DNA from: Herbidospora daliensis
Lineage (GTDB): Bacteria; Actinomycetota; Actinomycetes; Streptosporangiales; Streptosporangiaceae
Length of the DNA stretch: 64,000 nt
Reading direction: 5' to 3'
Assembly (NCBI RefSeq): GCF_001570585.1
Contig: NZ_BBXF01000007.1
Coordinates: forward strand, 201,508-265,507
The notes beneath the pieces were generated by a model. It saw nothing but the letters and a program-made list of their open reading frames with translations. It did no database searches and had not been told where the DNA came from. The translations under genes and the position numbers were made by a program. Below are positions 9,044-31,593 of the stretch, one piece after another (the stretch's first letter is position 1; each line of letters starts with the position of its first letter).

Positions 9044-9079
9044 TGGCGCGATTCGGTGAACAAGAGGGATGATTGACAA

Positions 9080-9718
9080 GTGGATCGACTTCGCGGCTGG
9101 CCCGCGACCCTGGCGGAGGGCCCCATCGGCCTCCGGCCGCTCCGGCTCCGCGACGTGCGCGTCTGGCGGGAAACCCGCCTGCGCAACGCCGACTGGCTGC
9201 GCCCCTGGGAACCCAGCAACCCCGAGACGCCCCTGTTCCGCACCGGCCTCAGCCCCTACGTCTCCATGGTCGGCACCCTCCGCCGCGAGGCCAGACAGGG
9301 CCTGGCCCTGCCGTGGGTCGTGACGTACAACGGCGCCTTCGCCGGCCAGCTCACCGTCGGCGCGATCGTCTGGGGCTCGGCCCGCTCCGCCCAGGTCGGC
9401 TACTGGGTCGACGGCGCCCAGGCCGGCAAGGGCATCATCCCCACCGCCCTCGCCATGGCCGTCGACCACTGCTTCTTCACCACCGGCCTCCACCGCCTCG
9501 AAGCCAACATCCGCCCCGAAAACCACGCCAGCCGCCGCGTCGTCGAAAAACTCGGCTTCCGCGAGGAGGGCGTACGCCGACGGCAACTCCACATCGACGG
9601 AGCGTGGCGAGACCACATCTGCTACGCGTTGACCGTGGAAGACGTGCCCAGGGGCCTGCTCGTCCAGTGGCGCCGCGCCCGAGACTCATCGGCCGCACGT
9701 CACGGCGAGTCCCCGTAG
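9080..9718 (+). CDS. rimJ: GNAT N-acetyltransferase, RimJ/RimL type
   Basis: The 212-residue protein starts at GTG 9080, 36 bp after mog. It has the RimJ-type GNAT fold: GPIGLRPLRLRDVRVWRETRLRNADWLRPWEPSNPE, VGYWVDGAQAGKGIIPTALAMAVDHCF (acetyl-CoA pyrophosphate loop; here QAGKGI in place of the usual R/QxxGxG/A), and RLEANIRPENHASRRVVEKLGFREEGVRRRQLHIDGAWRDHICYAL. Family members acetylate protein N-termini, for RimJ that of ribosomal S5. The same position downstream of the moe/moa genes and before sepX is conserved in actinomycetes; the substrate here is not proven. Confidence 0.88.
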   Translation: MDRLRGWPATLAEGPIGLRPLRLRDVRVWRETRLRNADWLRPWEPSNPETPLFRTGLSPYVSMVGTLRREARQGLALPWVVTYNGAFAGQLTVGAIVWGSARSAQVGYWVDGAQAGKGIIPTALAMAVDHCFFTTGLHRLEANIRPENHASRRVVEKLGFREEGVRRRQLHIDGAWRDHICYALTVEDVPRGLLVQWRRARDSSAARHGESP

Positions 9719-9840
9719 GCGACAACAGCTTCGACGATCTCGCGACACACCGGACCGAATGCTCGTCAATCAGTGACACGCCGCCTTACGGTGCGTGACG
9801 TGAGCATGCAGGCGGGCGGAGACCGGGAGGAGAGCAGCCG

Positions 9841-10440
9841 ATGAGCAGCGTCCTCCTATATCTGGCCATCGTCGCAATGTGGCTCGGCGTCCTCGTTCCG
9901 ATGTGGCTACGCCGCGACCGCTATGTCCTAATGGACGAAGACAAGGACAACACCGAGGGCGACACCTTGATCGAAACCCCCGATCAAGCCACCCCCTCAC
10001 CCACGACTGCGGAATCGTCGCAATCACCGGAAGAGGAGGCATCGGTGTCCGACCCCGCGGCCTCCTCCGACCCCCAGTACGCCACCAACCGCCGCAGAGC
10101 CCGCATCCGGGTCCGCCGGCGCCGCACCCTGCTGTGGTGCGTGGCCATGGTGCTCGTCTCCTCCGTGGCCGCCTTCCTCGGCGCGGTGCCGTGGTGGGGC
10201 GTCGTGCCGGCCGCGCTCCTTCTCGGGCTGTACGTGACGTTGCTGCGAGTGGCCTCCAAGCTGGAAGACGAGCAGCAGGACCTGGCGGCCCGCGTACGGG
10301 CCGATCGGATGCGACGGGCGCGGCAGGAAGCCCGGCGGGCCGCCGAGGCGGCTCTGGAGGCCGAGATCATCGAACTGGAGAAGAAGCGCGGGGGCGTGTT
10401 CGACCAGTACGCGGATCACCGGCGAGCGGTGGGGGACTAG
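9841..10440 (+). CDS. sepX: Divisome protein SepX/GlpR
   Basis: The 199-residue membrane protein begins with MSSVLLYLAIVAMWLGVLVPMW, a first membrane helix, followed by an acidic Ser/Thr/Pro/Glu linker (residues 32-75). A basic RRRRARIRVRRRR stretch leads into two further helices at about 90-130, then a C-terminal Arg/Ala/Glu-rich coiled coil. This matches SepX (formerly GlpR), an actinomycete protein linked in Streptomyces to FtsZ-ring stability and sporulation septation. It follows rimJ after a 122-bp gap and precedes tRNA-Ala, the usual context. Functional transfer to this species is inference. Confidence 0.85.
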   Translation: MSSVLLYLAIVAMWLGVLVPMWLRRDRYVLMDEDKDNTEGDTLIETPDQATPSPTTAESSQSPEEEASVSDPAASSDPQYATNRRRARIRVRRRRTLLWCVAMVLVSSVAAFLGAVPWWGVVPAALLLGLYVTLLRVASKLEDEQQDLAARVRADRMRRARQEARRAAEAALEAEIIELEKKRGGVFDQYADHRRAVGD

Positions 10441-10492: not shown

Positions 10493-10566
10493 GGGGCTAT
10501 AGCGCAGTCCGGTAGCGCACTTCGTTCGCATCGAAGGGGTCTGGGGTTCAAATCCCCATAGCTCCA
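10493..10566 (+). tRNA. tRNA-Ala (anticodon CGC)
   Basis: A 74-nt cloverleaf folds well. The acceptor stem GGGGCTA pairs with TAGCTCC and includes the G3-U70 wobble that marks alanine tRNAs. The D arm is GCGC/GCGC. The anticodon stem CTTCG/CGAAG closes loop TTCGCAT, giving anticodon CGC at positions 34-36. The T arm is TGGGG-TTCAAAT-CCCCA and the discriminator is A; CCA is not encoded. Its 3' part is duplicated at 22472, making it the attachment target of the integrated elements. Confidence 0.95.
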
Positions 10567-10648
10567 CTCATGAACTTGCAGGTCAGAGGCCAGTTCCGCT
10601 CAGCGGGGCTGGCCTTTTTGATCTTCTGAGTGACAAACTGAGTGACTG
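10525..10648. repeat. Left attachment repeat (attL) of the tandem elements
   Basis: This 124-bp stretch, covering the anticodon arm to the 3' end of tRNA-Ala, the terminator and GAGTGACAAACTGAGTGACTG, recurs at 22472-22595 with only two mismatches. It is the expected duplication made by a tRNA-targeting tyrosine integrase, longer than the usual 40-50 bp core because flanking element sequence is also shared. Confidence 0.85.
10588..10619 (+). terminator. Rho-independent terminator after tRNA-Ala
   Basis: GGCCAG-TTCCGC-TCA-GCGGGG-CTGGCC forms a 12-bp stem (two terminal G-U pairs in the inner part) followed by TTTTT. A copy with a compensating-type loop change lies at 22535-22566. Confidence 0.85.
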
Positions 10649-11371
10649 CGCCCGATCGCGTCCTGAGGGGCCTCAAGGCGCGCTTGCGGCCACCTGTGTA
10701 TCTAGATCGTCCTTTGGCAAATCCTCCAAAGCGCTGCTGGGCTTCACGCCCAGCTGAGGGCGGCGCTGGCCTTCAAGTACGAGAACGCCGTCGCTGACAG
10801 CCGCTCCCTACGTGCGGCGACCCATGCGAGGGACGGGGGTCACGTTCACTTCCTCAACGCGGCCATCGCTGGGACTGTCGATTTTCCTTTATATGCACGA
10901 TCGTCCAAGTTATGTCAACTATGAGAGTTTAATCCGAATTGATGTACTTCCTGTGCTTGCGGCCGATTGATTGATGCCATTGGTGCCAATAAATCCAACG
11001 TAATGGAATTTTTTTGGGGCATGCCTAAATCTATATAGTGACTGACTAATTTCGCGCATTACGCGAGACCCCCTTGTGTTCTGTAGTTTTGGATGGTCGA
11101 AGTGGTTGCTTGTCGCCGTTAAAAAGTGCGATGCCAGTCCATGAATAGATTTATGTCGCGATCAAATCGCGCTTTGGGTCCGCAACTTAACTTCTCCGCA
11201 GATGTTGTCGCTAGTTTTATTTCACGCGCCAGACACTGCTTCCACATTCTTCGTGTGCTTGTAATGGGCTATTAACAAAGAAGGGCTCGAAGTTGCTCGT
11301 CATAGCGGCCGGACCGCGCGCCCGGTCGACTCAGGAGCCTGCCGAGTCAACAGTGAGAGGGGGTGGCGCAA
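10649..11371. other. AT-rich stretch without a convincing gene
   Basis: Base composition drops sharply between about 10890 and 11290 compared with both sides. No open frame with a start and ribosome binding site is seen. On the plus strand an open frame without an initiator covers about 10700-10910 and ends ...SSKLCQL; it may be a gene remnant. The region occupies the same place, between the attachment repeat and the integrase terminator, that holds the two-gene cargo in element 2, so it may be a decayed cargo slot. Confidence 0.5.
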
Positions 11372-11728: not shown

Positions 11729-12859
11729 TTAAGCCTTGAAGATATCGTCCATGGCCTCAGCGCCCTCCAACAGCATGGGCCGGAGTTGCTTCCTGTAGAC
11801 GAGTTCAGTGACCTTGGTGTTGCTGTGGCCGACCAGGCGCGAGATGTTCTCGATGGGGACGCCGCTGTCCGAGAGCAGGGAGACGAAGCTGTGCCGCATC
11901 TCGCGCGGCGTCCACTCCTTCTCGTTCAGACCGGCCTTCTTGAGGACCTTCCGGAAGGCGCGGCGGACATTGTGTGAGTCGAGTTGAGTGCCGACCGTCG
12001 AGGCGAACACGAGGTCGTTCTCCTGCCACCGCTTCCCGGCAGCCTTGCGGGCGACGGCCTGACGCTCCTGATGGGCCTTCAGCGCCTCAGCGCAGCGCTT
12101 CGGCATGGCCAGCGTGCGCCGGGACATCTGAGTCTTGGTGTCGCCACCGGCCCGCACGGACCGCCACACCATGATGGACGCGGGTTCGCCCTTCAGGGCG
12201 ACGTGCGACCAGGTCAGGGCGCGGAGCTCCTCCGTACGAGCCCCGATCAGCAGAGACAGGACGATGTACGCGTTGAGCAACGTCCCGTCCGCCGCGTCCA
12301 GGACGGCTTCCGCCTGGTTGAAGGTCAGGGACTTGGACGGGCGGCCCGGCCGGCCTTTCGGGATCTCGCACAACAGGACCACGTTGCGCTTCACCTTGTC
12401 GCGGGCCTGGGCGCGGTTGACCGCGCGGAGCAGGATCGAGCGGACCTCACGCAGGGACCGGGTGCTGAGGACCTTCGAGCGGTCGGCCAGCCAGGTGTCA
12501 ACTTCGTCGGCGGAGAGCTCGGCCAGCTTGCGGGCGCCCAGGCAGGCGATCACGTGTTTCTGGCCGAGGATCTTGCACTTCTCGACGGTGGCGGAGTCTC
12601 GGCCGCTGAGGCCGAACAGGAGCCAGTTCTCCACCGCGTTCGCCACGGTGTATCCGGCCGAGGAGACGAGGAGGCCCTCCTCCCAGTCGCGGATGATCTG
12701 CTTCAGGCGTGCCTTCGCTTCGGTCTTCGTCTTGCCGCTGGCCTTCTTGACGATGCGCTTGCCCTTCGGGGTGTAGCCCACCGTGAGGGATGCGATCCAG
12801 CGCTGACGCTCTTCGTCCCAGTGGAGACCGCCGTCTCCCGGGCTACGTCGCTTGGTCAT
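11729..12859 (-). CDS. int: Tyrosine recombinase (AICE integrase), element 1
   Basis: The 376-residue protein has an N-terminal AP2-like arm-binding part (LHWDEERQRWIASLTVGYTPKGKRIVKKASG), a core-binding helical domain and a catalytic domain. Catalytic elements visible are Arg in GARTEELRALTW, RHSFVSLLSDSGVPIENISRLVGHS (His-x-x...and box II) and the nucleophile Tyr in TELVYRKQL. It integrates and, with Xis, excises the element at tRNA-Ala. Its ATG overlaps the xis stop. The copy in element 2 differs at few positions, mainly in the last 15 residues. Confidence 0.95.
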   Translation of the reverse strand: MTKRRSPGDGGLHWDEERQRWIASLTVGYTPKGKRIVKKASGKTKTEAKARLKQIIRDWEEGLLVSSAGYTVANAVENWLLFGLSGRDSATVEKCKILGQKHVIACLGARKLAELSADEVDTWLADRSKVLSTRSLREVRSILLRAVNRAQARDKVKRNVVLLCEIPKGRPGRPSKSLTFNQAEAVLDAADGTLLNAYIVLSLLIGARTEELRALTWSHVALKGEPASIMVWRSVRAGGDTKTQMSRRTLAMPKRCAEALKAHQERQAVARKAAGKRWQENDLVFASTVGTQLDSHNVRRAFRKVLKKAGLNEKEWTPREMRHSFVSLLSDSGVPIENISRLVGHSNTKVTELVYRKQLRPMLLEGAEAMDDIFKA

Positions 12860-13056
12860 CAGGCTCCCGCCTCCCGCTCCAGAAGAGTGATGTAGTCGGC
12901 GATGGCGCTCGCGGGCACCAGCCGGGTCCGGCCCTCCTTGACCGACCGCAGACGGCCGGACCGGATGAGTTCGTAGATCACCGTGCGGCTCAGGCCGAGC
13001 AGGTCCATCGCGGTGGCGACCCGATAGAGGCGGAAGGACGTCAGCTCACTTGCCAT
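12859..13056 (-). CDS. xis: Excisionase, helix-turn-helix MerR/BldC-like
   Basis: Starting at ATG 13056, the 65-residue protein has the compact winged-helix of the excisionase/DNA-binding family: FRLYRVATAMDLLGLSRTVIYELIRSGRLRSVKEGRTRLVPASAIADYITLLE. A longer in-frame version from 13125 would lie inside rep and is not needed. It overlaps rep by 11 bp upstream and int by 3 bp downstream, so rep-xis-int are co-translated, as in pSAM2. The role is to bend attachment DNA and bias Int toward excision. Confidence 0.9.
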   Translation of the reverse strand: MASELTSFRLYRVATAMDLLGLSRTVIYELIRSGRLRSVKEGRTRLVPASAIADYITLLEREAGA

Positions 13057-14413
13057 GGGCGGTCCCCGTTCCCTTGAGCTCGGCGGCCAGGGCGGCTTCA
13101 CCAGGGGTGAGGCCCTGACCGGCATAAGTCCACGAGCCGAGGACGAGCGTCGTCGCCGGGTCGCGGGTGATGCGGATGCGGAAGTCGGTGCGTGCCTGAC
13201 GGAGGCGCGTCAGCGTGGTCGAGTAGCGGCGGCTCTTGGTCGAGAAGTGGCCCCGGAATCCGAGCATGTGAGCCCACTCGCGGAGCCGGAGGTGGGCGTA
13301 CTCGGGATGGGCGATGTGGTTGCCGAGCCGCCAGGCGGTGCGGATCAGTTGGGCGGTGTGGTCGGGCACGCCCTGGGCCTTGAGCCGGGCGATGTCGTGA
13401 GCCCTGACCGGCCGGTCGAGCGTGCCGGAGGTCTCGGCCGACTTGGTGGCGTACTTGGCGACGTATCCGGCGACGGCGCGTTCGGTGATAGCGCCGGAGG
13501 CGGTGATGACGGAGACGTCGATCTGTCGTCCCCAGCGGAGAGGCTTGTCCAGGCCGGGGACGTCGAGGCTGACCGCGAGCGCGGCCGACCGTATTGCGTC
13601 CCCGAGCAGTTCAGCGGTGGCCCACGGCGGCGGTGTGACGAGCCCGGTTGATGAGCGGCCGTCGAGTCGGATGACCGCGTGGAAGTGGACCAGGCCGCGC
13701 GCCTGGTACTCGGCGACCTTGGCGAAGGAGACCCGGGTGGTGGCGTCGAAGGTGGTCCGGGACAGTCCGGCCGTGTTGGCCAGGTGACGGCGCAGGTAGA
13801 TGGTGAAGCGCCGCCAGAGGTCTCCGGCGTGGGCGTTCCACAGGACGTGGCCGGTGTAGTCGTAAGTGCCCGGGTCGATGGCCTGGCCGATACGCGGGTC
13901 GCCGGCCTTGTGCCAGTGGCGGCAGGACGGGCCGGTTCGCCGAGGGTGGCAGACCACGGTCTTGCCGTCCTTGCCGGGACCGCGATGGACCGGGCCGAAG
14001 GACGGCGCGGTGAGCGTGGCCAGCACGCGCGGGTGTGCGCTGACGGTCGAGGGCACGCCCTTGTCCCCGCCGAGGAGTCCGGCGCGGATGAGGTGGAAGG
14101 TGTCGCGGCGGTAGACCTCGGCGCAGGCCGGGCAGCGGGACGCGCGGCGGTTGCCGCACCTCAGCAAGAGATGCCCGTGCGGTTCGGCGCTGGTGTCGTA
14201 CGTGCTGACGATCTGGCCGGTCTGGGTGTCGAGCGTTTCGGTGTGGCCGGTGAGCCGCATCGGCTCGCGGCAGCCGCCCAGTCGTTCGACCTGGTCGAGC
14301 CAGCGGTTCAGGTCGTGGCCGGAGCGGCGGGCCAGGTCGCGGATGACCGGGCCGATGAGGTCGCTCAGCGCGGTCGGCGTCACCTGAGCGACTTCAGGGC
14401 GTGCGAAAGACAA
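13046..14413 (-). CDS. Replication initiator (RepSA-like, HUH endonuclease)
   Basis: A TTG start at 14413 has AGGAG five bases upstream; an in-frame GTG at 14383 (ATG in the element 2 copy) is the alternative. The 455-residue protein contains GLVHFHAVIRLDG, a canonical HUH metal-binding motif, and AVAGYVAKYATKSAE, the YxxK nucleophile motif, in the order used by rolling-circle initiators. A Cys-rich segment (LLLRCGNRRASRCPACAEVYRRDTFH) at about residue 80 forms a zinc ribbon. It nicks its own origin and drives rolling-circle replication of the excised element. Its end overlaps xis. Earlier in-frame codons up to 14710 run through the zinc-finger genes in the wrong frame and are rejected. Confidence 0.88.
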   Translation of the reverse strand: MSFARPEVAQVTPTALSDLIGPVIRDLARRSGHDLNRWLDQVERLGGCREPMRLTGHTETLDTQTGQIVSTYDTSAEPHGHLLLRCGNRRASRCPACAEVYRRDTFHLIRAGLLGGDKGVPSTVSAHPRVLATLTAPSFGPVHRGPGKDGKTVVCHPRRTGPSCRHWHKAGDPRIGQAIDPGTYDYTGHVLWNAHAGDLWRRFTIYLRRHLANTAGLSRTTFDATTRVSFAKVAEYQARGLVHFHAVIRLDGRSSTGLVTPPPWATAELLGDAIRSAALAVSLDVPGLDKPLRWGRQIDVSVITASGAITERAVAGYVAKYATKSAETSGTLDRPVRAHDIARLKAQGVPDHTAQLIRTAWRLGNHIAHPEYAHLRLREWAHMLGFRGHFSTKSRRYSTTLTRLRQARTDFRIRITRDPATTLVLGSWTYAGQGLTPGEAALAAELKGTGTAHGK

Positions 14414-17923: not shown

Positions 17924-18228
17924 GGGGTCGTGACCTTGCCGACCTGGAGGTCGAGCCAGTCGACTTCCACGCCGGACAGCAGTTCGTCACGGGCGCCGAG
18001 GAACCGCTTCGTGTGCTCCTGCTCCTCGTGAGCGTCGAAGGCGTCGCGGTCGCGGTAGAGCTCGTAGAAGATCCGCAGGAGTGGCTCACCGTCGACCTTG
18101 TGGACGGTGTAGACGAGCGTGCCCGGCTCGTGCGCCTTGATCCCTTCGATGGTCTCGCCGATGAGCTGATCGAACGCGTCGGCGGCGGCCTGGTCCTTGC
18201 AGGTGAAGCGGACTACTAGCCCGAACAT
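17920..18228 (-). CDS. Antibiotic-biosynthesis-monooxygenase (ABM) domain protein
   Basis: The 102-residue protein is a single ABM/YgiN ferredoxin-like fold: MFGLVVRFTCKDQAAADAFDQLIGETIEGIKAHEPGTLVYTVHKV...LLRIFYELYRDRDAFDAHEEQEHTKRFL. Conserved His (HEEQEHT) and Glu residues of the family are present. ABM proteins are small cofactor-independent oxygenases or ligand-binding proteins. Being translationally coupled to the XRE-TPR regulator suggests a sensing rather than metabolic role, which is inference. Upstream lie AGTACTT-type boxes shared with the divergent ATP-binding gene. Confidence 0.8.
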   Translation of the reverse strand: MFGLVVRFTCKDQAAADAFDQLIGETIEGIKAHEPGTLVYTVHKVDGEPLLRIFYELYRDRDAFDAHEEQEHTKRFLGARDELLSGVEVDWLDLQVGKVTTP

Positions 18229-19760: not shown

Positions 19761-21107
19761 ATGCTTATCAGCGAGATAGTGATCGAGAACATTAAGGGAT
19801 TCGGAGCAAAAGAAGCCGGTGTAGCGCTCGACTTCGTACGGGAAGATGGAAGTCTACCCAGATGGGTTGTAGTCGCAGGCCGGAACGGGGCGGGTAAGTC
19901 GTCCTTTCTTCAGTCGATTGCGCTGGCTATTGCAGGACCATCCGCTGCAAGAACCCTTCGTGAGACATTCGCAGATTGGATTCGAGAGGACGTCGACGAA
20001 GCCTACGTGAAGACACGTCTGCGATTTTCTGACTTTGATGCCTTTGCTCCTGGGCGAGTTCCGAAGTTTGAGCCATGGTCGGGCTTGAAGTGGATTCGTC
20101 AAGAGGAAGGTCCGGAACCGTCTATCGAAAAGACAAGAGACAAGGTACGCGAGAATTGGGATCCGGTGCGGGGTCCATGGTCGGCCAATCCGCAGGGATG
20201 GTTTCTAGCAGGTTACGGACCATTTCGACGTCTCTCGCTAGCTCCAACCGAAGCGCAGCGACTGATGATGACTCCAGGTAGACCTTCCAGCCTGGCGAGC
20301 CTCTTTAGAGAAGAAGCGTCTCTCTCTGAGTCTGTTCTGTGGCTTCAACAACTCTATCTCCGAAGGCTTGAGGGCTCTGAAGACGCCGACCGTGTAGAGA
20401 AAGCCGTACTGAAGCTCTTGGGGGATGGGCTACTGCCAGAGGGCATGACAGTAAAGCGGGTAACTTCGGATGGCTTGTGGATTACCACTCCGGACGGTAT
20501 AGAGCTTCCTCTTCGGTCGCTAAGTGACGGATATCGAACAGTTGCTGCACTGGTTCTCGACTTGGTGAAGCAGCTATACGCCGCATTTGGTGATCTCAAA
20601 GAAATAGGTGGGGAAAAGATTGCGTTTGGCCATTCGGGTGTCGTTCTTATTGATGAGATTGATGTTCATCTCCATGTTTCCTGGCAGCAGAGGATTGGCT
20701 TCTGGCTAAAAGAGCACTTTCCTAACCTGCAATTCATTGTTAGTACGCACAGCCCTTTCATTTGTCAGGCTGCCGATGATAAGGGCCTAGTTCGCCTTTC
20801 CGCTCCCGGTGAAGGAGAGGGGGCAAGAATCGTGGAAGGAGAGTTGTTTAATCGAGTCGTAAATGGCACGGCGGATGACGCGGTTCTGACTGATCTGTTC
20901 GGTTTGGAAACCCCTTATTCGCGGCCTACGCTTGAGCTGCGAAACGAGGCGGCAAGCCTAGAGATGAAGGCGGCCTCTGAACATATCTCTGTTAGCGAGC
21001 AGGCTCGACTCAAGGAGATAAAATCCAGGCTGCCGCGGACTCCGTCGAAGGATGTAGCGGATGCTATCCAGCAGTTGACGCTAAGTTTCGACGATGCAGA
21101 AGATTGA
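19761..21107 (+). CDS. ptuA: Septu-type defence ATPase (PtuA-like)
   Basis: The 448-residue AAA/ABC-type ATPase has Walker A AGRNGAGKSS near residue 40, a signature-like LRSLSDGYRT near 258, Walker B GVVLIDEIDVHLH near 293 and the H-switch STHSPF near 331. The order and length match the AAA_21/AAA_23 ATPases of Septu. The next gene is an HNH nuclease that overlaps it by 14 bp, as in ptuA-ptuB pairs. Known Septu systems restrict phage, with PtuA sensing nucleotide or phage state and unleashing PtuB. Codon use is visibly less GC-rich than the element backbone, showing separate acquisition. No reverse transcriptase is nearby, so this is stand-alone Septu rather than the retron-linked form. Confidence 0.82.
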   Translation: MLISEIVIENIKGFGAKEAGVALDFVREDGSLPRWVVVAGRNGAGKSSFLQSIALAIAGPSAARTLRETFADWIREDVDEAYVKTRLRFSDFDAFAPGRVPKFEPWSGLKWIRQEEGPEPSIEKTRDKVRENWDPVRGPWSANPQGWFLAGYGPFRRLSLAPTEAQRLMMTPGRPSSLASLFREEASLSESVLWLQQLYLRRLEGSEDADRVEKAVLKLLGDGLLPEGMTVKRVTSDGLWITTPDGIELPLRSLSDGYRTVAALVLDLVKQLYAAFGDLKEIGGEKIAFGHSGVVLIDEIDVHLHVSWQQRIGFWLKEHFPNLQFIVSTHSPFICQAADDKGLVRLSAPGEGEGARIVEGELFNRVVNGTADDAVLTDLFGLETPYSRPTLELRNEAASLEMKAASEHISVSEQARLKEIKSRLPRTPSKDVADAIQQLTLSFDDAED

Positions 21108-21813
21108 GAGGCTCCCGCTCGGCAAGTTGGAGCAGAAGAAGCTTGATGATCTTTCCTTGGAAGTTGCACGCTCCAAGGATCCGAAAGCTACGGCGACGAA
21201 GCTTTGGGAGAAGCTGGATCGAAGACTAAAAAGTGAAGTTCAGGCTGTCCTTGCCCGGATGAGCTCAGGGCTTGAGCGATGCATGTACTGCGAAGATAGC
21301 CAGGGGACTGACATTGAACATTTTCGACCCAAGTCTGCATATCCAGATCATGCTTTTTCTTGGCTGAACTACCTACTGGCCTGCACGCGTTGTAACAGCA
21401 ACCATAAACGTACTTTGTTTCCGTTGGGCTCTGATGGTGATGCTCTTCTAATTGATCCCACGGTAGACGACCCTTCGGCTCACTTGCAGTTGACCCCAAC
21501 TACTGGTCTCTATGTAGGTATAGATGCGAAGGGCGATGCAACTATCGGCGTCTGTGGATTGAATCGGGACGTATGTGCAAGCGGAAGATCGAATGCATGG
21601 ACGGCGATCGAATACCTGATCCCTTCGTATGTTAAAGCTCTGGAGAGCGGCTACTCAGATAAGGCATTCAAGATTCTTAAGGTGTTGCGCGAGTACCCTT
21701 TTCAGTCGGTCAGAGTGGCAATGGTAAAGGTCTTTTCGGAAGCGCAAGATCCTGGGCTGCTGCTTTCTGCTGAAGTTATTTCGGCGTTCAGGGAATACCC
21801 GGAACTGAAATAA
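21094..21813 (+). CDS. ptuB: Septu-type HNH endonuclease (PtuB-like)
   Basis: The 239-residue protein starts at ATG 21094 inside ptuA. The HNH/zinc centre is CMYCEDSQGTDIEHFRPKS (Cys63, Cys66, catalytic His75) and CTRCNSNHK (Cys97, Cys100, Asn101, His104). The DIEHFRPKS core is the usual PtuB form. The remaining C-terminal 120 residues are helical. It is the nuclease effector expected to cut DNA when released by the ATPase. Low GC and overlapping translation tie it to ptuA. Confidence 0.84.
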   Translation: MQKIERLPLGKLEQKKLDDLSLEVARSKDPKATATKLWEKLDRRLKSEVQAVLARMSSGLERCMYCEDSQGTDIEHFRPKSAYPDHAFSWLNYLLACTRCNSNHKRTLFPLGSDGDALLIDPTVDDPSAHLQLTPTTGLYVGIDAKGDATIGVCGLNRDVCASGRSNAWTAIEYLIPSYVKALESGYSDKAFKILKVLREYPFQSVRVAMVKVFSEAQDPGLLLSAEVISAFREYPELK

Positions 21814-22471: not shown

Positions 22472-22595
22472 TTCGCATCGAAGGGGTCTGGGGTTCAAAT
22501 CCCCATAGCTCCACTCATGAACCTGCAGGTCAGAGGCCAGTTCCGCTTAGCGGGGCTGGCCTTTTTGATCTTCTGAGTGACAAACTGAGTGACTG
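22472..22595. repeat. Central attachment repeat between elements 1 and 2
   Basis: Copy of 10525-10648 with two mismatches, containing the 3' part of tRNA-Ala (from the anticodon loop on), the terminator (22535-22566) and the GAGTGAC motifs. The 5' part of the tRNA is absent, so no functional tRNA is made here. The upstream 22355-22471 shows the element's own right end. Confidence 0.85.
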
Positions 22596-23203
22596 TCCTC
22601 GACGATCCGAGATCATGTATGCCGACGTGGATGGCGGCTGGCTCGCCGAGAGCGGCATCCAACGGCGTGCGCCAATGAGGAGCACAACGTAGGTAAGCCT
22701 GCAGAGTGCTACAAGGCTGCGGTTACCAGGGATCACGCCGGATATGAGGTGATTACCCCACTGCGCAGATCAGGTGTTAAGCATGCTGCTGAGGTTCAAG
22801 CCGCAGTCTCACCGTGGCGAACGCTGTAGCCAGGACCCATCACTCCTCTGGTGCCGAAGCTCTGAGCGTTGCAACCGAGTTGTGGTTCACCGTCTTGACT
22901 GTGGTCGCTGGCATAGCCGCCTGGCCGTATGGCTGCAGAGCCCCATGTCTTGCATTCTCGGAAGGAACTGAGTCCGCATGGGTAGTCCCTACCAGCAAGG
23001 TCGGAGCATGTCCGCAAAGCATGGCAGCTGAAGCCTGCACACCCGCTGAGCTGGAGAAACGGGGCTATCTAGCGTCGGTGCCTATAAACGTGAAGGCACC
23101 ACTTCTGCGCTGGAGCGATGGCCTGCGACATTCCAGTCAACAGAGGACATGTTTTGGCTCGCAGGCCTGCTAACGAGGGGCTAATCAGGACTACGATGCC
23201 ACA
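22596..23203. other. Gene-poor stretch before the cargo operon
   Basis: Open frames exist on both strands but none has a ribosome binding site, family resemblance or consistent codon bias. The plus-strand frame 22814-23173 includes a hydrophobic run (ELWFTVLTVVAGIAAWPYG) that could be a remnant of a small membrane protein. I see nothing I can name. Confidence 0.4.
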
Positions 23204-24136
23204 ATGACCGACGATCGTGACCGCATGCTGCCTGCCGAGGATAGCGAAGGCGGGGATCTTGACGAGTTCCGAGCTCTCGTAAAGGCGGCGTTTGAGCAAG
23301 CGCTCAGCAGTGGGAAGTCGACCTGGGAGGAAATGACTTCGGCTGTCCTGAAAAATCGGTTGCTCAATCTTACGCAAGGGCAGTTCACGGAGAGTCGTTA
23401 CGGATCTCCGAACTTTATCCATCTTGTGCATAAAGTCCCGGATCTCCTTAGCGTTACTAGCAGCAAGCCGCCATTCAATCTGAGGATCAACTCTGCCGCC
23501 GTAAGCTCAAAAGAAATTAAGGTCGATCAGGGGATACCCCCCCTTGTTAGCGCAGGAACGTTCGCTCCACTAACGGAGAAGGATTGGCGCAAGGCGCGAA
23601 TTAGAGATGATTTGTGGCGTGCGGTTCTGGACTATGCGAGCGGAGAGACTTACGTACTGGATATTGAAAGCGGCCATGCTCGGCCGGGGACATCGAACGA
23701 CTCGAATCTTCCGCTCGCCCCAACAGTTTCCAGCGACGCCGTTGCGTCGTGGAGGAATGAGTTTATCGAGTCGCTCGCGCTACCAGTAGCGGAAAAGTTT
23801 GCTGAAGAGCTACGGGTATGGAAGGCAGGTAAAGGGCGCCAGTCTGACCTTCCTCATAGTGTCCGCGGGCTTTGGTCGGGATTCATAAAGAAAAAAGTAA
23901 GCGGCATATTGTTTGAGTGGTTTGACAGGCTGGGCGAGTCGCCGCCCAAGGACCTGATTCAGACGCCAAATAGCCGAGTTGTCCCGCCTGCTGAAGCAAT
24001 TCAAGAAGTTGTTCATACGAGACAGTTGAGAGATTATATAATCCGCGCCATTCGGGTAATGACCTATGAAGAGCTCGTCCAGGTTACGCTGCCGGCGTCA
24101 GTCATGCTTCGCGCTTCAGATCAGGAGAGTCGGTAG
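23204..24136 (+). CDS. Cargo protein A with LOTUS/OST-HTH-like N-terminus, unknown function
   Basis: The 310-residue protein starts at ATG 23204. Residues about 20-98 resemble an OST-HTH/LOTUS winged helix, an RNA-binding fold: helices around FRALVKAAFEQAL and WEEMTSAVLKNRLLN, then the typical YGSPNFIHLVHKVPDLLSV. The middle (residues 115-170) has WRKARIRDDLWRAVLDYASGETYVLDIESG, and the C-terminal half is helical and basic with LRDYIIRAIRVMTYEEL. No nuclease motif was found. GC content is low, and the next gene follows after 2 bp, so the pair forms an operon with protein B. It lies in the cargo slot between the attachment repeat and int. LOTUS assignment is tentative. Confidence 0.7.
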   Translation: MTDDRDRMLPAEDSEGGDLDEFRALVKAAFEQALSSGKSTWEEMTSAVLKNRLLNLTQGQFTESRYGSPNFIHLVHKVPDLLSVTSSKPPFNLRINSAAVSSKEIKVDQGIPPLVSAGTFAPLTEKDWRKARIRDDLWRAVLDYASGETYVLDIESGHARPGTSNDSNLPLAPTVSSDAVASWRNEFIESLALPVAEKFAEELRVWKAGKGRQSDLPHSVRGLWSGFIKKKVSGILFEWFDRLGESPPKDLIQTPNSRVVPPAEAIQEVVHTRQLRDYIIRAIRVMTYEELVQVTLPASVMLRASDQESR

Positions 24137-24138
24137 GG

Positions 24139-25038
24139 GTGGCCGAAGTCTCGGAGGCGGAAGTAAGCGTTCCGAAGGGTCTGGGGCCAGGTGATACTCC
24201 TAGCTCCCTTACGTGGCCTCGCAGCCTTTGGCTCGTACTGCCAGCGAATCCCAGCAAGACACAGCTCGAGACGATAAAGAAATTTCGCGCACAGTTTGGT
24301 AATGAGAAGGAGATCTCGGTATCAGAAGTTCGGATTGAGGAAAGAAGGGGCGCTGGGGGTATGGTTTTCCCGCTTATCTCTGCGCAGGATATTTCTGGCC
24401 TTTATCGTCGAGCTCATCGGGCTCGGACGGTAGTGATTGCGTTCGGCAGCGCAAAAATTCTCCTGGATGGTAGGGAGTTGCCCAGCAACAAGGGCTGCAT
24501 GTCTTTGGAAAAATTCATTAGATACAAGTGCTTCTATGTATTGATCAGTAGGCTGGAAGAGGTTGAAAAGGGCTGGGCGAAGGCCCTGGATTGGATGAAT
24601 GAGCGTCACTGTGAGGGCCCGAATGACCCGCGCTGTTTTCCTGTTGCAGCATTTGATGCCCAGGGCGAATGTTCATTAGACAGTGCAGCGGGGCGCCAGG
24701 AGTTCATTGCGCTGCATAAAGAGACAAAGTCGAGCAAGCATCTCACGGATGCATGCGGCCGTACTTGGCAGCGAGGGCCAGATCATTCGCGTGATCTAAT
24801 TCAAGTTGCGGGGACGACTCTGCCGATTGGATTCCATTGGGACGTTCAGGCGGCGCGCAATAGCACTATCGCAACGGGTTGGGAGGTGTGGCATCTGCCG
24901 AAAGGTGGCTACACAAATATTCACCCAGATGCTATGGTGCGGGGCGGTCATGCTACTAAGAAATACCCGTCTTCCGCTGGCTCGAGTAAGCCGAAGACGC
25001 CAAAAGCGGCTCGTAGCCAGGCGCGTCGAAAAAAGTGA
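24139..25038 (+). CDS. Cargo protein B, unknown function, partner of protein A
   Basis: The GTG start lies two bases after the stop of gene A, with AGGAG about 12 bases upstream, so translation is coupled. The 299-residue product has an N-terminal alpha/beta part (LWLVLPANPSKTQLETIKKFRAQFG, VVIAFGSAKILLDG), a central segment rich in Asp, Cys and His (CEGPNDPRCFPVAAFDAQGECSLDS), and a C-terminal GFHWDVQ...WEVWHLPKGGYTNIHPDAMVRGG with conserved-looking His, Trp and Asp that could be an active or metal site. A Lys/Arg-rich tail ends the protein. I recognise no family. A strong terminator follows. Confidence 0.68.
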   Translation: MAEVSEAEVSVPKGLGPGDTPSSLTWPRSLWLVLPANPSKTQLETIKKFRAQFGNEKEISVSEVRIEERRGAGGMVFPLISAQDISGLYRRAHRARTVVIAFGSAKILLDGRELPSNKGCMSLEKFIRYKCFYVLISRLEEVEKGWAKALDWMNERHCEGPNDPRCFPVAAFDAQGECSLDSAAGRQEFIALHKETKSSKHLTDACGRTWQRGPDHSRDLIQVAGTTLPIGFHWDVQAARNSTIATGWEVWHLPKGGYTNIHPDAMVRGGHATKKYPSSAGSSKPKTPKAARSQARRKK

Positions 25039-25044
25039 TAAAAA

Positions 25045-25070
25045 AAATGCCCCGCATGGCGGGGCATTTC
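25045..25070 (+). terminator. Terminator of the cargo A-B operon
   Basis: AATGCCCCGC-ATG-GCGGGGCATT makes a strong hairpin seven bases after the gene B stop, in an A-rich context on the 5' side and TTTC on the 3' side. Confidence 0.75.
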
Positions 25071-25472
25071 ATCGGGGCTTAATCTCAAGAACTTGCGCGA
25101 CAGTACGATGCAGATCGCCCATTAAAACTTCAAAGTCTGTGGCATTCAGCGTGTAACGCCGAACGCGATAGCGTAGTCTTAGCCCGATGGAGCTCTGCGT
25201 ACCGTCACTACGTTTCTTTGAGACTGGCTCTCAGTAGTAGCTACCACTGAAGGCCTGTCCACGGAGTGTTGCCACCCGGCAGACAACCTCAAGGTATCAC
25301 ACGGTCATCGTTCTGACAGGTCAGGCCATGTCTTGCTTCAGCAGGGCTGCTCTTCCCAGGTCGCCGTGATTGTCTGACACTCGCAACGTCGCAGTCCTAC
25401 AGCTATCTACTAGCTAGTGACCAGTTCCGCTGGACGGAACTGGTCTTTTCGACCTTCCGAGCTCTAACTAGG
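25071..25472. other. Gene-free stretch with int terminator, element 2
   Basis: No gene is seen. The only defined element is the hairpin GACCAGTTCCG-CTGGA-CGGAACTGGTC with TTTT at 25419-25449, the counterpart of the terminator after int in element 1. Confidence 0.6.
25419..25449. terminator. Terminator downstream of int (element 2)
   Basis: The 11-bp stem GACCAGTTCCG/CGGAACTGGTC with a 5-base loop is followed by TTTT on the plus strand. The stem sequence differs from element 1 by paired changes (GGCC to GACC and GGTC), keeping the structure. Confidence 0.75.
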
Positions 25473-26606
25473 TCACTCCGACGCGAAGATGCTGTCCATG
25501 GCTTCAGCATCCTCTATGAGCATCGGGCGAAGCTGCTTCCTGTAGACGAGCTCGGTGACCTTGCTGTTGCTGTGGCCGACTAGGCGCGAGATGTTCTCGA
25601 TGGGGACGCCGCTGTCCGAGAGCAGGGAGACGAAGCTGTGCCGCATCTCGCGCGGCGTCCACTCCTTCTCGTTCAGACCGGCCTTCTTGAGGACCTTCCG
25701 GAAGGCGCGGCGGACGTTGTGTGAGTCGAGTTGAGTGCCGACAGTGGAGGCGAACACGAGGTCGTTGTCCTGCCACCGCTTCCCGGCAGCCTTGCGGGCG
25801 ACGGCTTGGCGTTCGTTATGGGCCTTGAGGGCCTCGGCGCAGCGCTTCGGCATGGCGAGCGTGCGCCGGGACATCTGAGTCTTGGTGTCGCCACCGGCCC
25901 GGACGGACCGCCAGACCATGATGGACGCGGGTTCGCCATCAAGGTCGACGTGCGACCAGGTCAGGGCGCGGAGCTCTTCGGTACGAGCTCCGATCAGCAG
26001 CGACAGGACGATGTACGCGTTGAGCAACGTCCCGTCCGCCGCGTCCAGGACGGCTTCCGCCTGGTTGAAGGTCAGGGACTTGGACGGGCGGCCCGGCCGG
26101 CCTTTCGGGATCTCGCACAACAGAACCACGTTGCGCTTCACCTTGTCGCGGGCCTGGGCGCGGTTGACCGCGCGGAGCAGGATCGAGCGGACCTCACGCA
26201 GAGACCGGGTGCTGAGGACCTTCGAGCGGTCGGCCAGCCAGGTGTCAACTTCGTCGGCGGAGAGCTCGGCCAGCTTGCGGGCGCCCAAGCATGCGATCAC
26301 GTGTTTCTGGCCAAGGATTTTGCACTTCTCGACGGTGGCGGCGTCCCGGCCGCTGAGGCCGAACAGGAGCCAGTTCTCCACCGCGTTCGCCACGGTGTAT
26401 CCGGCCGAGGAGACGAGGAGGCCCTCCTCCCAGTCGCGGATGATCTGCTTCAGGCGTGCCTTCGCTTCGGTCTTCGTCTTGCCGCTGGCCTTCTTGACGA
26501 TGCGCTTGCCCTTCGGGGTGTAGCCCACCGTGAGGGACGCGATCCAGCGCTGACGCTCTTCGTCCCAATGGAGACCGCCGTCTCCTGGGCTACGTCGCTT
26601 GGTCAT
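25473..26606 (-). CDS. int: Tyrosine recombinase (AICE integrase), element 2
   Basis: The 377-residue protein is nearly identical to the element 1 integrase and keeps the catalytic Arg (GARTEELRALTW), RHSFVSLL, GHS and the Tyr in TELVYRKQL. Differences cluster at the C-terminus (LIEDAEAMDSIFASE) and a few scattered codons. Two active, near-identical integrases on neighbouring elements could act on each other's attachment sites, so the array may excise as one unit or separately. Its ATG overlaps the xis stop. Confidence 0.94.
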   Translation of the reverse strand: MTKRRSPGDGGLHWDEERQRWIASLTVGYTPKGKRIVKKASGKTKTEAKARLKQIIRDWEEGLLVSSAGYTVANAVENWLLFGLSGRDAATVEKCKILGQKHVIACLGARKLAELSADEVDTWLADRSKVLSTRSLREVRSILLRAVNRAQARDKVKRNVVLLCEIPKGRPGRPSKSLTFNQAEAVLDAADGTLLNAYIVLSLLIGARTEELRALTWSHVDLDGEPASIMVWRSVRAGGDTKTQMSRRTLAMPKRCAEALKAHNERQAVARKAAGKRWQDNDLVFASTVGTQLDSHNVRRAFRKVLKKAGLNEKEWTPREMRHSFVSLLSDSGVPIENISRLVGHSNSKVTELVYRKQLRPMLIEDAEAMDSIFASE

Positions 26607-26803: not shown

Positions 26804-28165
26804 GGGCGGTCCCCGTTCCCTTGAGCTCGGCGGCCAGGGCGGCTTCACCAGCCGTGAGGCCCTGACCGGCGTAGGTCCACGAGCCGAGGACGAGCGTCGT
26901 CGCCGGGTCGCGGGTGATGCGGATTCGGAAGTCGGCGCGCGCCTGCCGGAGGCGCGTCAGCGTGGTCGAGTAGCAGCGGCTCTTGGTCGAGAAGTGGCCC
27001 CGGAAGCCGAGCATGTGAGCCCACTCACGGAGCCGGAGGTGGGCGTACTCGGGATGGGCGAGGTGGTTGCCGAGCCGCCAGGCGGTGCGGATCAGTTGGG
27101 CGGTGTGGTCGGGCACACCTTGGGCCTTGAGCCGGGCGATGTCGTGAGCCCTGACTGGCCGGTCGAGGGTGCCGGAGGTCTCGGCCGACTTGGTGGCGTA
27201 CTTGGCGACGTATCCGCGACCGCGCGTTCGGTGATGGAGCCGGAGGTGTCGGCGGTGATGACCGAGACGTCGATCTGTCGGCCCCAGCGAAGCGGCTCGT
27301 CCTGGCCGGGGACGTCGAGGCTGACCGCGAGCGCGGCCGACTGGACCGCTTCCCTGAGCAGTTCCGCCGTGGCCCATGGCGGCGGTGTGACGAGCCCGTT
27401 TGATGAGCGGCCGTCGAGTCGGATGACCGCGTGGAAGTGGACCAGGCCGCGCGCCTGGTACTCGGCGACTTTGGCGAAAGAGACGCGAGTGGTGGCGTCG
27501 AAGGCGGTCCTGGACAGACCGGCGGCGTTGGCCAGGTGACGACGCAGATAGATGGTGAAGCGCCGCCAGAGGTCTCCGGCGTGGGCGTTCCACAGGACGT
27601 GGCCGGTGTAGTCGTAGGTGGTCGAGTCGATGGCCTGACCGACGAGTGGGTTGCCGGCCTTGTGCCACCGACGGCAGGCCGGGCCGGTTCGCCGAGGGTG
27701 GCAGACCACGGTCTTGCCGTCCTTGCCGGGACCTCGATGGACCGGGCCGAAGGACGGCGCGGTGAGCGTGGCCAGCACACGCGGGTGTGCGCTGACCGTC
27801 GCGGGGACACCCTTGTCTCCGCCGAGGAGACCGGCCCGGATGAGATGGAAGGTGTCGCGGCGGTAGACCTCGGCGCACGCCGGGCAGCGGGACGCGCGGC
27901 GGTTGCCGCACCTCAGCAAGAGGTGTCCGTGCGGTTCGGCACTGGTGTTGTACGTGGCGACGATCTGGCCCGTCTGAGTGTCGAGCGTTTCGGTGTGGCC
28001 GGTAAGCCGCATCGGTTCCCGGCAGCCGCCCAGCCGCTCGACCTGTTCGAGCCAGCGGTTCAGGTCGTGGCCGGAGCGGCGGGCCAAGTCGCGGATGACC
28101 GGGCCGATGAGGTCGCTCAGCGCGGTCGGCGTCATCTGAGCGACTTCAGGGCGTGCGAAAGACAA
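26793..28165 (-). pseudogene. Frameshifted replication initiator, element 2
   Basis: The gene begins at TTG 28165 (AGGAG upstream) or ATG 28135 and is closely similar to the element 1 rep. Near 27215 one base is missing (ATCCGCGACCGCGCG against ATCCGGCGACGGCGCG), shifting the frame. The HUH motif HFHAVI lies before the shift and the YVAKYATK nucleophile motif after it, so neither fragment can nick DNA alone. The downstream frame stays open to the normal stop at 26793. A sequencing error cannot be excluded, but other lesions in this element support real decay. Confidence 0.82.
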
Positions 28166-28239
28166 CGGTTCTCCTGGTGAGCTATGAGATGCGGCGCGAG
28201 GCGGGAGCTGGCAGGCGTCGACCGCCTCGCGCCGAGAGT

Positions 28240-28356
28240 TCAGATGCCGTGGTTGTCCATGCCGGTGCCCAGGCAGTCGAGGCAGGTGACGGCCTCGCCT
28301 TGGTCGTCGTTGACGAGACCGGTTCCACCACAGGTGCAGCAGCGGGAGCGGATCAC
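28240..28356 (-). CDS. Tiny CxxCxGxG zinc-finger protein B, element 2
   Basis: A 38-residue product from GTG 28356, differing from the element 1 copy at one residue (GTGMDNHGI for GTGIDNHGI); both zinc knuckles are intact. It overlaps the stop of the broken gene A. Confidence 0.6.
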   Translation of the reverse strand: MIRSRCCTCGGTGLVNDDQGEAVTCLDCLGTGMDNHGI

Positions 28357-28502
28357 AGGATGCCGGTGCCACTGCAGTCGAGGCAGAACGCCCAGGTGTC
28401 GAACTCGGCGATGGTCCGGCCACGCCTGACGATGACGGTGTCTTCGATCTAGCCCTCGCCACCGCAGGTGAGGCAGGGGACGGGCTTCTTCTTCCGAGGC
28501 AT
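28353..28502 (-). pseudogene. Tiny zinc-finger protein A with premature stop, element 2
   Basis: From ATG 28502 the product reads MPRKKKPVPCLTCGGEG and then TAG at 28449-28451, where element 1 has CAG (Gln). Beyond the stop the frame continues IEDTVIVRRGR...CLDCSGTGIL to the normal end. One Lys codon is also inserted near the start. The stop removes the second zinc knuckle. Confidence 0.75.
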
Positions 28503-28514: not shown

Positions 28515-29871
28515 TCAGGCCGCGTAGGCGTCGTACTCGTCGTCGCCGATCGGGACGACGTCGGCGGTCGTGATGTCGGCCCAGGTCGGGCGCAGATGGG
28601 CGTAGGTCACCGCGGCTTGCTCCGCCTGTTGTTCGGTGACGTACTCGGATCGGGCCTTGTACCAACGGCCGTCCGCACCGGTGACGACGGCCAGGCCGGG
28701 CGTCTCGGCGGGGATGAGCCGGGCGGCGTTGAGTGCGGCCGGGTCCATGTCGCCGAGCGTCATGTTCGCCGTCTCGGGGTCGTTGACGCGGTGGCAGACC
28801 CGGCCGGAGAGCTGGGCGCGGAGCGCGGTGACTCCGGGGCCGAGGTCGGAGCCGACGCGCTGGCCGCAGATGACGAGGTAGACGCCGAACGCGCGGCCGA
28901 GCTGGGCGATGCGGATGAGGTTGGTCGCCGTCGCGGCGATCTCGTCTTTCTCCGACTTGTCGGCCATCAGGAACAGCTCGGCGACCTCGTCGACGAACAT
29001 GATGACCGGGACGGGTTGGGCGCTCTCGGGAAGCTGCCAGATGTTGCGCACCCGGTTGTCACGGCAGGTCGCCATGCGCCGCTTGATCTCGTCGATGAGC
29101 CGGTTCAGGACCGCTGTCATCTGCGCGCGGTCGGTGGCGAGCGCCGTCAGACGGTCCTCGTACGGGGTGAGCTCGACCCCGCCCTTGAGGTCGCACCCGA
29201 TGATGGCGAGAGGTTGCGGTGCCAGACCGCAGATGAGCCGGTTGATGAGCGTCGACTTGCCTGACTGCGTTGCCCCCGTGATGAGCCAGTGCGGCATGGT
29301 GGTGAAGTCGATGACCCAGGGCGCGTTGGTTTCCAGGCGTCCGACACAGACTTTGAGGAACTGGTCGACGACGGAGGCGCTGACCGAGGTAAGCGGGTCG
29401 TACACGGTCGCCTGAAGCTGGACCTTGCCAGGCTTCCAGCGCAGCACCCGGACGGAATGCACGCCATGCGTGGCCGAGGTGGTCGAGCTTGGCGGTGTAG
29501 TGGTCGGGCGTCTGGCCGTCCGGGAGGCGTACCCACAGCTTGAAGCCGTGTCGAAGCGGCAGCACCAGCCCGAGCCCGGGTGCCTTGTCGATCTGGACAC
29601 GGCGTAGTCGGCGCTTGTCCTCCCGCCCTTTCGTGAGGAGGTCGAGGGCGGTGACGCCGTCGAGCGTCCATCGGATGCGGCGCCGTTTGGTGCTGAGCCC
29701 GCACCCGGCCGCGACGTTCCCCCACGTGAGGTAGACCCGCGCGGCCCGCAGGGGGTAGCCGACGCCGAGCCAGAACGAGGCGGGGTGCAGGTGACGCCAG
29801 GTCACCAGCAGCGCGGCGAGGAACGCGAGGACACCCCCGATCGGGGCGAGTGAAACCAGCAGGTCGGTCAT
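28515..29871 (-). pseudogene. Frameshifted TraB/FtsK translocase, element 2
   Basis: The N-terminal part from ATG 29871 follows the element 1 protein (MTDLLVSLAPIGGVLAFLAALL...) to about 29462, where two bases are missing in the run encoding HAWRVHSV (GAATGCACGCCATGCG against GAGTGCACGCGCCATGCG). The remaining frame to 28515 still encodes the complete motor domain with Walker A GATQSGKST and FVDEVAEL. The membrane part and the motor are thus separated. The motor fragment has no clear start of its own. Confidence 0.82.
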
Positions 29872-30624: not shown

Positions 30625-31593
30625 ATGCGCAGGCCTGATGGACATCGCATTGAAAGGCAGGGTGTGGCTTACTGTCAGTCTTTTTTTGACGTAGATCTCG
30701 GGTGGATTTTCCGTGAACAGACTATCGGCGACTATGGCATTGATGCCCAGGTCGAGATTGTCGATGACGATAGAGTTGAGGGCAAGCTTATTGCCGTCCA
30801 GATAAAATCTGGAGATAGTTATTTCCGAGAAAAGAGTGATGGTGGATGGACCTTTCGCCCCAAGGGTGAACATGTTCGATACTGGCTCGCACATGCGCTT
30901 CCTGTAATCATCGTGATTTTCGATCCAAAATCAAATAAGGCTTATTGGCAGTCAGTCTCAAAACACACTCTCTCTCGAAGTGGCAAGGATGGATGGAAGC
31001 TGCACATACCTTCGCTCCAAGAGTTGTCAGTTTCGTCAGCTAGACCCCTGTCGAAATTAGCCGAAGGGGACCCATATGTGCTTAGGTTGCGTAGCCTGCA
31101 GCTAGCTCATCCCTGGATCGAGATGCTCTCTAGGGGATCCCGACTCTTCGTTGAATATGACGACTGGGTTAATAAGACGTCAGGGCGTGGGACTGTCACG
31201 ATTTTTGCCGAAGGGAAGGATGGTGAGGACGTAGAGCTCGGTAGCTGGGCATTCATCGCTGGATTACATGAAGAACGAACTCACGATTTTTTTGCCTGGG
31301 CCGAACTCAATATTGACACCGACTACTACTATGAGCATGACTATGCCCAGTTCGAGTTGGAGTGCGGCATCTGGGATGGCGAAGATGGGAAGTACCATAT
31401 TTTTGAAGATTTCCGCGAGTGGCGCAAAGACTATTTTGGGCCTGGGATTCGCCCTTACTCCAATACCGCCGGGGAGGTTGCTCATTATCGACTGGAGCTA
31501 ACGCTTAATGATCTTGGTGAGTCCTTCCTCGTCGTGAACGAATTTCTAATGAAAGATGCAGTTGAACTTCTTGTGAGGGAAGAGGGTGATTGA
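30625..31593 (+). CDS. DUF4365 domain protein (predicted PD-(D/E)xK nuclease-like), cargo
   Basis: The 322-residue protein begins RRPDGHRIERQGVAYCQSFF, then FREQTIGDYGIDAQVEI and KLIAVQIKSG: Glu31, Asp40 and Gln59-x-Lys61 in the spacing of the DUF4365 restriction-endonuclease-like fold. RYWLAHALPVIIVIFDP and YWQSVSKHTL continue the same domain. The C-terminal half (residues about 170-322) is acidic and aromatic (FAWAELNIDTDYYYEHDYAQFELECGIWDGEDG) and is not recognised. DUF4365 proteins recur in defence islands, often as single genes. Low GC and its place between backbone remnant and the cargo-boundary repeat mark it as cargo. Whether it cuts DNA is untested. Confidence 0.72.
   Translation: MRRPDGHRIERQGVAYCQSFFDVDLGWIFREQTIGDYGIDAQVEIVDDDRVEGKLIAVQIKSGDSYFREKSDGGWTFRPKGEHVRYWLAHALPVIIVIFDPKSNKAYWQSVSKHTLSRSGKDGWKLHIPSLQELSVSSARPLSKLAEGDPYVLRLRSLQLAHPWIEMLSRGSRLFVEYDDWVNKTSGRGTVTIFAEGKDGEDVELGSWAFIAGLHEERTHDFFAWAELNIDTDYYYEHDYAQFELECGIWDGEDGKYHIFEDFREWRKDYFGPGIRPYSNTAGEVAHYRLELTLNDLGESFLVVNEFLMKDAVELLVREEGD

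What the first reader, a model, noticed from the sequence alone, without database searches (positions are those of the whole stretch)
23204..25038. Unrecognised two-gene cargo operon, candidate new defence system
Two coupled genes (stop to start 2 bp, shared terminator) sit in the cargo slot of an AICE whose sister element carries Septu. Protein A has a LOTUS/OST-HTH-like N-terminus, suggesting RNA binding; protein B has a distinctive GFHWDVQ...NIHPDAMVRGG end with possible metal or catalytic residues and a basic tail. Neither fits a family I know. Seen: operon, low GC, location. Inference: anti-phage or anti-plasmid function.
Basis: partly seen in the sequence, partly recalled or inferred. 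Interest (0 to 1): 0.8.

Follow-up and report, generated by a model that had tools for sequence, protein, structure and literature searches.

The report
Mobile gene pair with structured RNA
A rare pair of unknown bacterial genes, carried on mobile elements that insert at tRNA genes, appears to come with an undescribed folded RNA encoded head-on against it, so the three may work together as one RNA-protein module, possibly for defence against phages or rival elements.

Summary
Genes A (23204-24136) and B (24139-25038) form a low-GC operon between an att site and the integrase of an AICE; the tandem sister AICE carries Septu. No library searched explains A or B; A's N-terminus is a divergent, sub-threshold LOTUS/OST-HTH domain. 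Relatives are rare: 3 of 295 genomes of another actinomycete genus have both genes, adjacent and in the same order, near tRNA-like att sequence. B's GFHWDV...NI[HY]PD...R motif is conserved in all four.

The new result is a third part. In the three relatives a gapless 180-nt non-coding block follows B. It is more conserved than the genes and folds on the strand opposite to A-B, with 8 pairs changed on both sides. In the window the same place and strand (about 25287-25040) folds unusually well (z -4.9) with the same layout, and ends in a terminator whose T-run is on that strand. Its homology to the relatives' RNA rests on position, strand and shape; sequence and covariance-model searches do not show it.

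Best reading: a mobile RNA-protein module (LOTUS-like protein, effector candidate, RNA). A defence function is plausible and untested.

The parts
23204..24136 (+). Gene A, 310 aa: divergent LOTUS/OST-HTH-like N-terminus (about residues 25-88) and an unknown C-terminal part
24139..25038 (+). Gene B, 299 aa: unknown fold; conserved C-terminal motif GFHWDV...EVW.LP...Y.NIHPD...R.G; effector candidate
25040..25287 (-). Predicted structured RNA convergent to A-B: hairpin 1 (25285-25256), hairpin 2 (25255-25226), long arm (25225-25081), terminator hairpin; ends predicted, not mapped
   Evidence: counterpart block in relatives
25044..25070 (-). Terminator-like hairpin with an 8-T run on the minus strand, placed between B and the RNA gene
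22472..22602 (+). att copy (tRNA-Ala 3' end and flank) at the left end of element 2, which carries A-B
25473..26606 (-). Tyrosine integrase of element 2; context, not part of the module

Best explanation
A, B and the convergent RNA are one mobile three-part unit carried as cargo by AICE-like elements. SHOWN by computation: the operon; co-occurrence and same order in 4 loci; purifying selection; nearby tRNA-like att sequence; a covarying structured RNA downstream of B in three loci; a stable RNA fold in the same place and strand in the window. INFERRED: A's LOTUS domain binds the RNA; A, B and the RNA form a ribonucleoprotein; B, with its conserved His/Trp/Asp/Arg C-terminal motif, is the effector (perhaps a nuclease) that the A-RNA complex holds inactive or aims. 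Phage infection, or entry of a competing element, disturbs the RNA or the complex and frees B, which arrests or kills the cell or attacks the invader.
For: Pair always together in the loci found (window). Conserved DNA between L120 and L121 runs from about 47 bp upstream of A to the far end of the RNA block, with little beyond. RNA block: 163, 143 and 146 of 180 identical without gaps, against 77%, 67% and 66% for the aligned segment as a whole; 8 of 61 pairs changed on both sides, 0 of 500 shuffles as high. Window counterpart z -4.88 on the minus strand, -0.63 on the plus strand. RNA model hits only the two A-B genomes among 81. LOTUS-like domain in A, a domain class predicted to bind RNA (PMC2848206, passages). 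Conflict context: Septu in the sister element and a DUF4365/DREN-like ORF in the same element.
Against: No activity has been tested. No fold for B. LOTUS match stays under Pfam's cut-off in all four A proteins. The covariance model does not recover the window RNA above chance: 10.6 bits, rank 4 in 15.1 kb, and better but non-significant hits elsewhere in the genome. Only four loci, three of them from one genus. No consensus promoter for the RNA.
Confidence: 0.4

Rival explanations
1. An addiction or element-maintenance module (toxin-antitoxin-like, RNA-regulated): A or B is toxic and the RNA or the partner neutralises it, so that the element is kept. Protection from phage is incidental or absent.
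For: Compact unit of two genes and an RNA on mobile elements with little else conserved; RNA-controlled toxins are known (type III toxin-antitoxin systems; recalled).
Against: No match of A or B to a toxin or antitoxin family over cut-off; the RNA is a single, non-repetitive structure on the opposite strand, unlike type III antitoxins (recalled).
Confidence: 0.25
2. An element-housekeeping module: an RNA-protein regulator of AICE excision, replication or transfer.
For: A-B sits between att and integrase in the window; in L121 it lies in an att-bounded stretch with an integrase.
Against: The sister AICE, with int, rep and tra segments over 90% identical, has no second copy: one match in the whole genome. 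The unit sits with different elements at different tRNA-like sites.
Confidence: 0.15
3. The conserved block is a DNA site (recombination or transfer origin) rather than an RNA, and the window fold is coincidence.
For: Inverted repeats also serve as DNA sites; the window stretch has no sequence match to the other three; single folds of L120 differ little between strands (z -2.54 and -1.93).
Against: In the consensus fold 7 one-sided changes keep pairs on one strand, while the other strand has none and more broken pairs. The window strands differ strongly. The T-run lies on the RNA strand (relatives by eye). The block is tied to A-B although the elements use different tRNA-like sites.
Confidence: 0.15

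Closest known systems
Bacterial NYN/DUF88 proteins with OST-HTH (LOTUS) domains
   Same: A's N-terminus aligns with their LOTUS domain (profile probability 65.6).
   Different: A has no NYN/DUF88 match and a fixed partner gene; PMC2848206 (passages) reports the DUF88 fusion for almost all bacterial versions and no conserved neighbourhood links to known RNA-processing systems.
Retrons and other RNA-containing defence systems
   Same: A mobile unit of proteins plus a dedicated structured RNA (analogy, recalled).
   Different: No reverse transcriptase or other known partner among A and B; the RNA is convergent to the operon.
Type III toxin-antitoxin systems (ToxIN type)
   Same: An RNA beside a possible toxin gene (analogy, recalled).
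   Different: No toxin family match, no RNA repeats, opposite strand, two proteins.
Septu (PtuA/PtuB)
   Same: Two-gene cargo of the same element type, in the same tandem array.
   Different: A and B match no PtuA or PtuB model.

Membership tests
OST-HTH/LOTUS domain (PF12872) | Pfam gathering score 23.8 bits | tested here: not met
   Best is 22.7 bits (relative L116 fragment); window 14.8 whole and 17.5 as fragment; L114 whole protein gives no match
OST-HTH/LOTUS domain (PF12872) | Profile similarity to accepted LOTUS domains | tested here: met
   hhalign probability 65.6, P 5.8e-5 against 9 NYN-LOTUS proteins; A C-terminus and both halves of B 0.1-0.6. Moderate, not decisive
OST-HTH/LOTUS domain (PF12872) | Binds RNA | not testable with these tools
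   Prediction for the domain class only (PMC2848206, passages)
Bacterial NYN-LOTUS RNases | DUF88/NYN nuclease domain in the same protein | tested here: not met
   No NYN/DUF88 match in A or its homologues
Known defence systems in PADLOC-DB 2.0.0 | Match to a system's protein models | tested here: not met
   0 of 8 A/B proteins
Retron | Reverse transcriptase gene in the unit | tested here: not met
   A and B have no reverse transcriptase match
Type III toxin-antitoxin | ToxN-type toxin gene | tested here: not met
   No toxin model matched over cut-off
Anti-phage defence system | Protection against phage when present | not testable with these tools
   Needs plating assays
AICE (the carrier element) | Tyrosine integrase, RepSA-type initiator, FtsK/Tra protein, att repeat at a tRNA | tested here: met

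The most novel reading that the evidence does not exclude
A new class of mobile bacterial immunity: a LOTUS-domain protein bound to a dedicated structured RNA controls a previously unknown effector (B). It would connect the LOTUS domain of animal germ-granule proteins to a prokaryotic RNA-protein conflict system that uses no reverse transcriptase, CRISPR or known guide machinery.
Probability: 0.3. Interest if true: 0.9.

Novelty: categorically new. Interest (0 to 1): 0.75.

Why it matters
If true, a rare actinomycete cargo module brings its own RNA together with a LOTUS-type protein, a combination that matches no system in the libraries searched here. It would make the role of bacterial LOTUS domains outside NYN nucleases testable, and add an RNA-protein defence or addiction system whose second protein has no recognised family. 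The whole unit is about 2.1 kb and could be moved into laboratory strains as one fragment.

Tried and rejected
Close-relative and pattern searches gave no homologue in viral contigs, genome contigs (80 stretches returned, probably a capped list, none a homologue by script), plasmids or phages. Weak hits H1, H2 and H10 were looked at and rejected: no matching ORF, a different ORF, and a conjugation gene cluster. A had weak hits in 38 of 395 non-own phylum genomes at E up to 1; three of these loci were read and were chance; the rest were not read.

Ntox17 as B's C-terminal toxin domain: a lead from one Pfam match (E 0.11) and from recall. It vanished with other boundaries and in the three homologues. 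Comparison with family members was not possible: none in 197 and 14 genomes, and the 14 control genomes did not ring either.

Structure: B alone pLDDT 33.8 and A's N-terminus alone 48.4, too poor for a fold search, so none was run. An ORF on the RNA strand was considered and rejected: differences are even over three phases, and the window reading frames do not resemble the relatives' by eye. The covariance model does not recover the window RNA above chance.

Full report
1. The observation. Two adjacent ORFs lie at 23204-24136 (A, 310 aa) and 24139-25038 (B, 299 aa, GTG start), 2 bp apart. GC is 0.53-0.56, against 0.65-0.70 in the neighbouring AICE core. They lie in element 2 of a tandem AICE pair at a tRNA-Ala gene (10493-10567). 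A 131-nt stretch with the tRNA 3' end and its flank occurs at 10525-10655 and, 96% identical, at 22472-22602; long segments of the two element cores are 91-96% identical. Integrase 25473-26606, RepSA 27092-28462 and FtsK 28515-29600 are confirmed by Pfam. The sister element's cargo is Septu, PtuA and PtuB at 19761-21813.

2. No known family. A and B have no match over cut-off in Pfam, NCBIfam, PADLOC or PHROGs and no PDB sequence match better than E 0.2. A has a sub-threshold OST-HTH match: 14.8 bits whole and 17.5 as N-terminal fragment, cut-off 23.8.

3. Relatives. B was absent from the other 59 of 60 relatives and 340 of 341 family genomes; A from the other 393 of 394 class genomes and, at E 0.001, from the other 395 of 396 phylum genomes. 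These sets overlap. In each, both genes are present, adjacent, in the same order and strand. Window A is 34-39% and window B 27-30% identical to them. Between L120 and L121 dN/dS is about 0.15 (A) and 0.07 (B); for most other pairs dS is saturated. GC3 of A and B is 0.53-0.61 in all four loci, while 18 of 19 neighbouring ORFs of 260 aa or more in L120-L122 have GC3 of 0.73-0.94. A profile search with B in 179 genomes of the same genus found two of the same genomes and no new one. Enrichment in defence islands was not tested.

4. Mobility. L121 has a tRNA-Arg (8976-9051), an integrase beside it (9107-10336), A-B at 11933-13641, and copies of the tRNA 3' end at 15537 and 17953. In L120 two copies of a tRNA-Ser-like 3' end stand at 9600 and 11731, the second about 450 bp before A. 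In L122, which ends at a contig end, a single tRNA-Gly-like 3' end stands at about 10050, some 650 bp beyond B; repeats were not searched there. The last two are read by eye: ARAGORN calls neither, and its one call in L122, at 5289, is elsewhere. The pair therefore appears to ride on different elements at four tRNA-like sites.

5. Protein A is LOTUS-like. The N-terminal fragments of the three homologues give OST-HTH as their only Pfam match, 14.5, 16.7 and 22.7 bits; as whole proteins two of three do so. A profile of the four A N-termini aligned to 9 NYN-LOTUS proteins from relatives (a tenth, L135, was dropped) with probability 65.6, P 5.8e-5; the C-terminal part of A and both halves of B gave 0.1-0.6. 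PMC2848206 (passages) reports that almost all bacterial OST-HTH domains are fused to DUF88/NYN nucleases and that those genes show no conserved neighbourhood links to known RNA-processing systems. A has no NYN match, and has a fixed partner.

6. E-V-W-x-L-P ... Y-x-N-I-[HY]-P-D ... R-x-G, with further invariant residues such as D204, R208, W210, H216 and D219. No fold could be assigned; the single-sequence model is unusable.

7. The third part. DNA conserved between L120 and L121 runs from about 47 bp upstream of A to about 245 bp beyond B; the only other matches are a 32-nt inverted match in the terminator and a 37-nt match further on. Its last 180 nt (L120 14018-14197, L121 13713-13892, L122 10664-10485) align without a gap, 163, 143 and 146 of 180 identical, more than the aligned segment as a whole (77%, 67% and 66%). 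The differences fall evenly over three phases, unlike those in A and B. On the strand opposite A-B the consensus fold has 61 pairs, 7 with compensatory, 7 with one-sided and 4 with broken changes; on the A-B strand 55 pairs, 7, 0 and 6. The counting tool gives 97.8% of cells paired and 8 pairs changed on both sides, in five of eight helices; no shuffle of 500 reached these values, while 36 of 500 reached the number of pair types; slid versions pair 28-46% of cells. The structure was derived from these same three sequences, which favours it. No Rfam family matches the block. The RNA model matches 2 of 81 genomes, once each, at A-B; both sequences are in the model, and no further copy was found.

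8. The window RNA. The same place and strand in the window (25300-25069, minus) folds at -92.3 kcal/mol, z -4.88, 0 of 200 shuffles; the plus strand gives z -0.63, 57 of 200. For the relative L120 the contrast is smaller: -2.54 and -1.93. In a scan of 31 positions on both strands with 40 shuffles each, 25100-25299 minus (z -3.88) is exceeded only by 25400-25599 minus (z -5.99), which holds the hairpin at the end of int. The layout is that of the relatives: hairpin 1 with a 4-base loop (GCAA here and in L120, GUGA in L121, another in L122), hairpin 2 directly after it, a long arm, then the terminator hairpin. The terminator's T-run is on this strand in the window (0.6 such sites expected by shuffling) and, by eye, in the three relatives, though the scan calls none in L121.

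9. Against the window RNA. No sequence-level homology can be shown. The covariance model's hit at 25284-25200 scores 10.6 bits and ranks fourth in 15.1 kb; the best hits in the whole genome lie elsewhere and are not significant. A shape filter (two small hairpins, then a long arm) is met by the three relatives and by the window when the 5' end is set at 25287 or 25284, but by only 2 of 30 end choices in the scan around the locus; 4 of 1594 other segments of the window meet it. No consensus sigma-70 promoter was found. I put the odds that the window holds a functional counterpart of the relatives' RNA at about 0.75 (judgement).

10. Mechanism. The most economical reading is a ribonucleoprotein module: A binds the RNA through its LOTUS domain, and B is the effector that the complex controls. 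Mobile position, rarity, low GC, Septu in the sister element and, in the same element, an ORF at 30625-31593 similar to DREN-APAZ and DUF4365 proteins (PDB phmmer E 4.8e-10 and 1.3e-7) favour a role in conflict between phages, elements and host. None of this tests defence. An addiction module, an element-regulatory module and a DNA-level reading of the block are kept as rivals.

11. Literature. Ten searches were made. Those on OST-HTH or LOTUS with bacterial, defence, anti-phage or Streptomyces terms, on AICE or integrative-element defence cargo (108, 112), on a two-gene anti-phage RNA-protein system (134) and on candidate structured RNAs (141) listed no title or abstract that describes this pair or RNA; the papers were seen as listings only, and one search showed 10 of 27 papers. 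The library holds open-licence PMC papers only. PMC11706625 (passages) describes another nuclease gene family found in AICEs and near defence systems, so defence-linked cargo on AICEs is not itself new. PMC3482391 and PMC12288458 were seen as passages on Ntox17. PMC3710099 was looked up and its main text as held has no OST-HTH.

Noticed in passing
window 30625-31593 (+): A low-GC ORF at the other end of element 2 matches DREN-APAZ and DUF4365-domain proteins of the PDB over residues 23-115 (E 4.8e-10 and 1.3e-7): a second candidate conflict gene on the element that carries A-B.
   Followed up: partly
window 10493-33900: Tandem AICE pair at tRNA-Ala with near-identical cores and different cargo (Septu against A-B); further att-like repeats near 33506, 33855 and 35081.
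   Followed up: partly
L120 9600-11778: A 2.1-kb island between two tRNA-Ser-like repeats with a formylglycine/sulfatase-modifying-factor-like protein, and a Prim-Pol protein just before it.
   Followed up: no
L121 15537-18823: A third tRNA-Arg 3'-end copy at 17953, with small genes that look by eye like PIN-type toxin-antitoxin pairs around it.
   Followed up: no
window 25400-25599 (-): Very stable minus-strand fold (z -5.99), at the 3' end of integrase 2; a similar hairpin stands at the end of integrase 1 by eye. Probably the integrase terminator.
   Followed up: no
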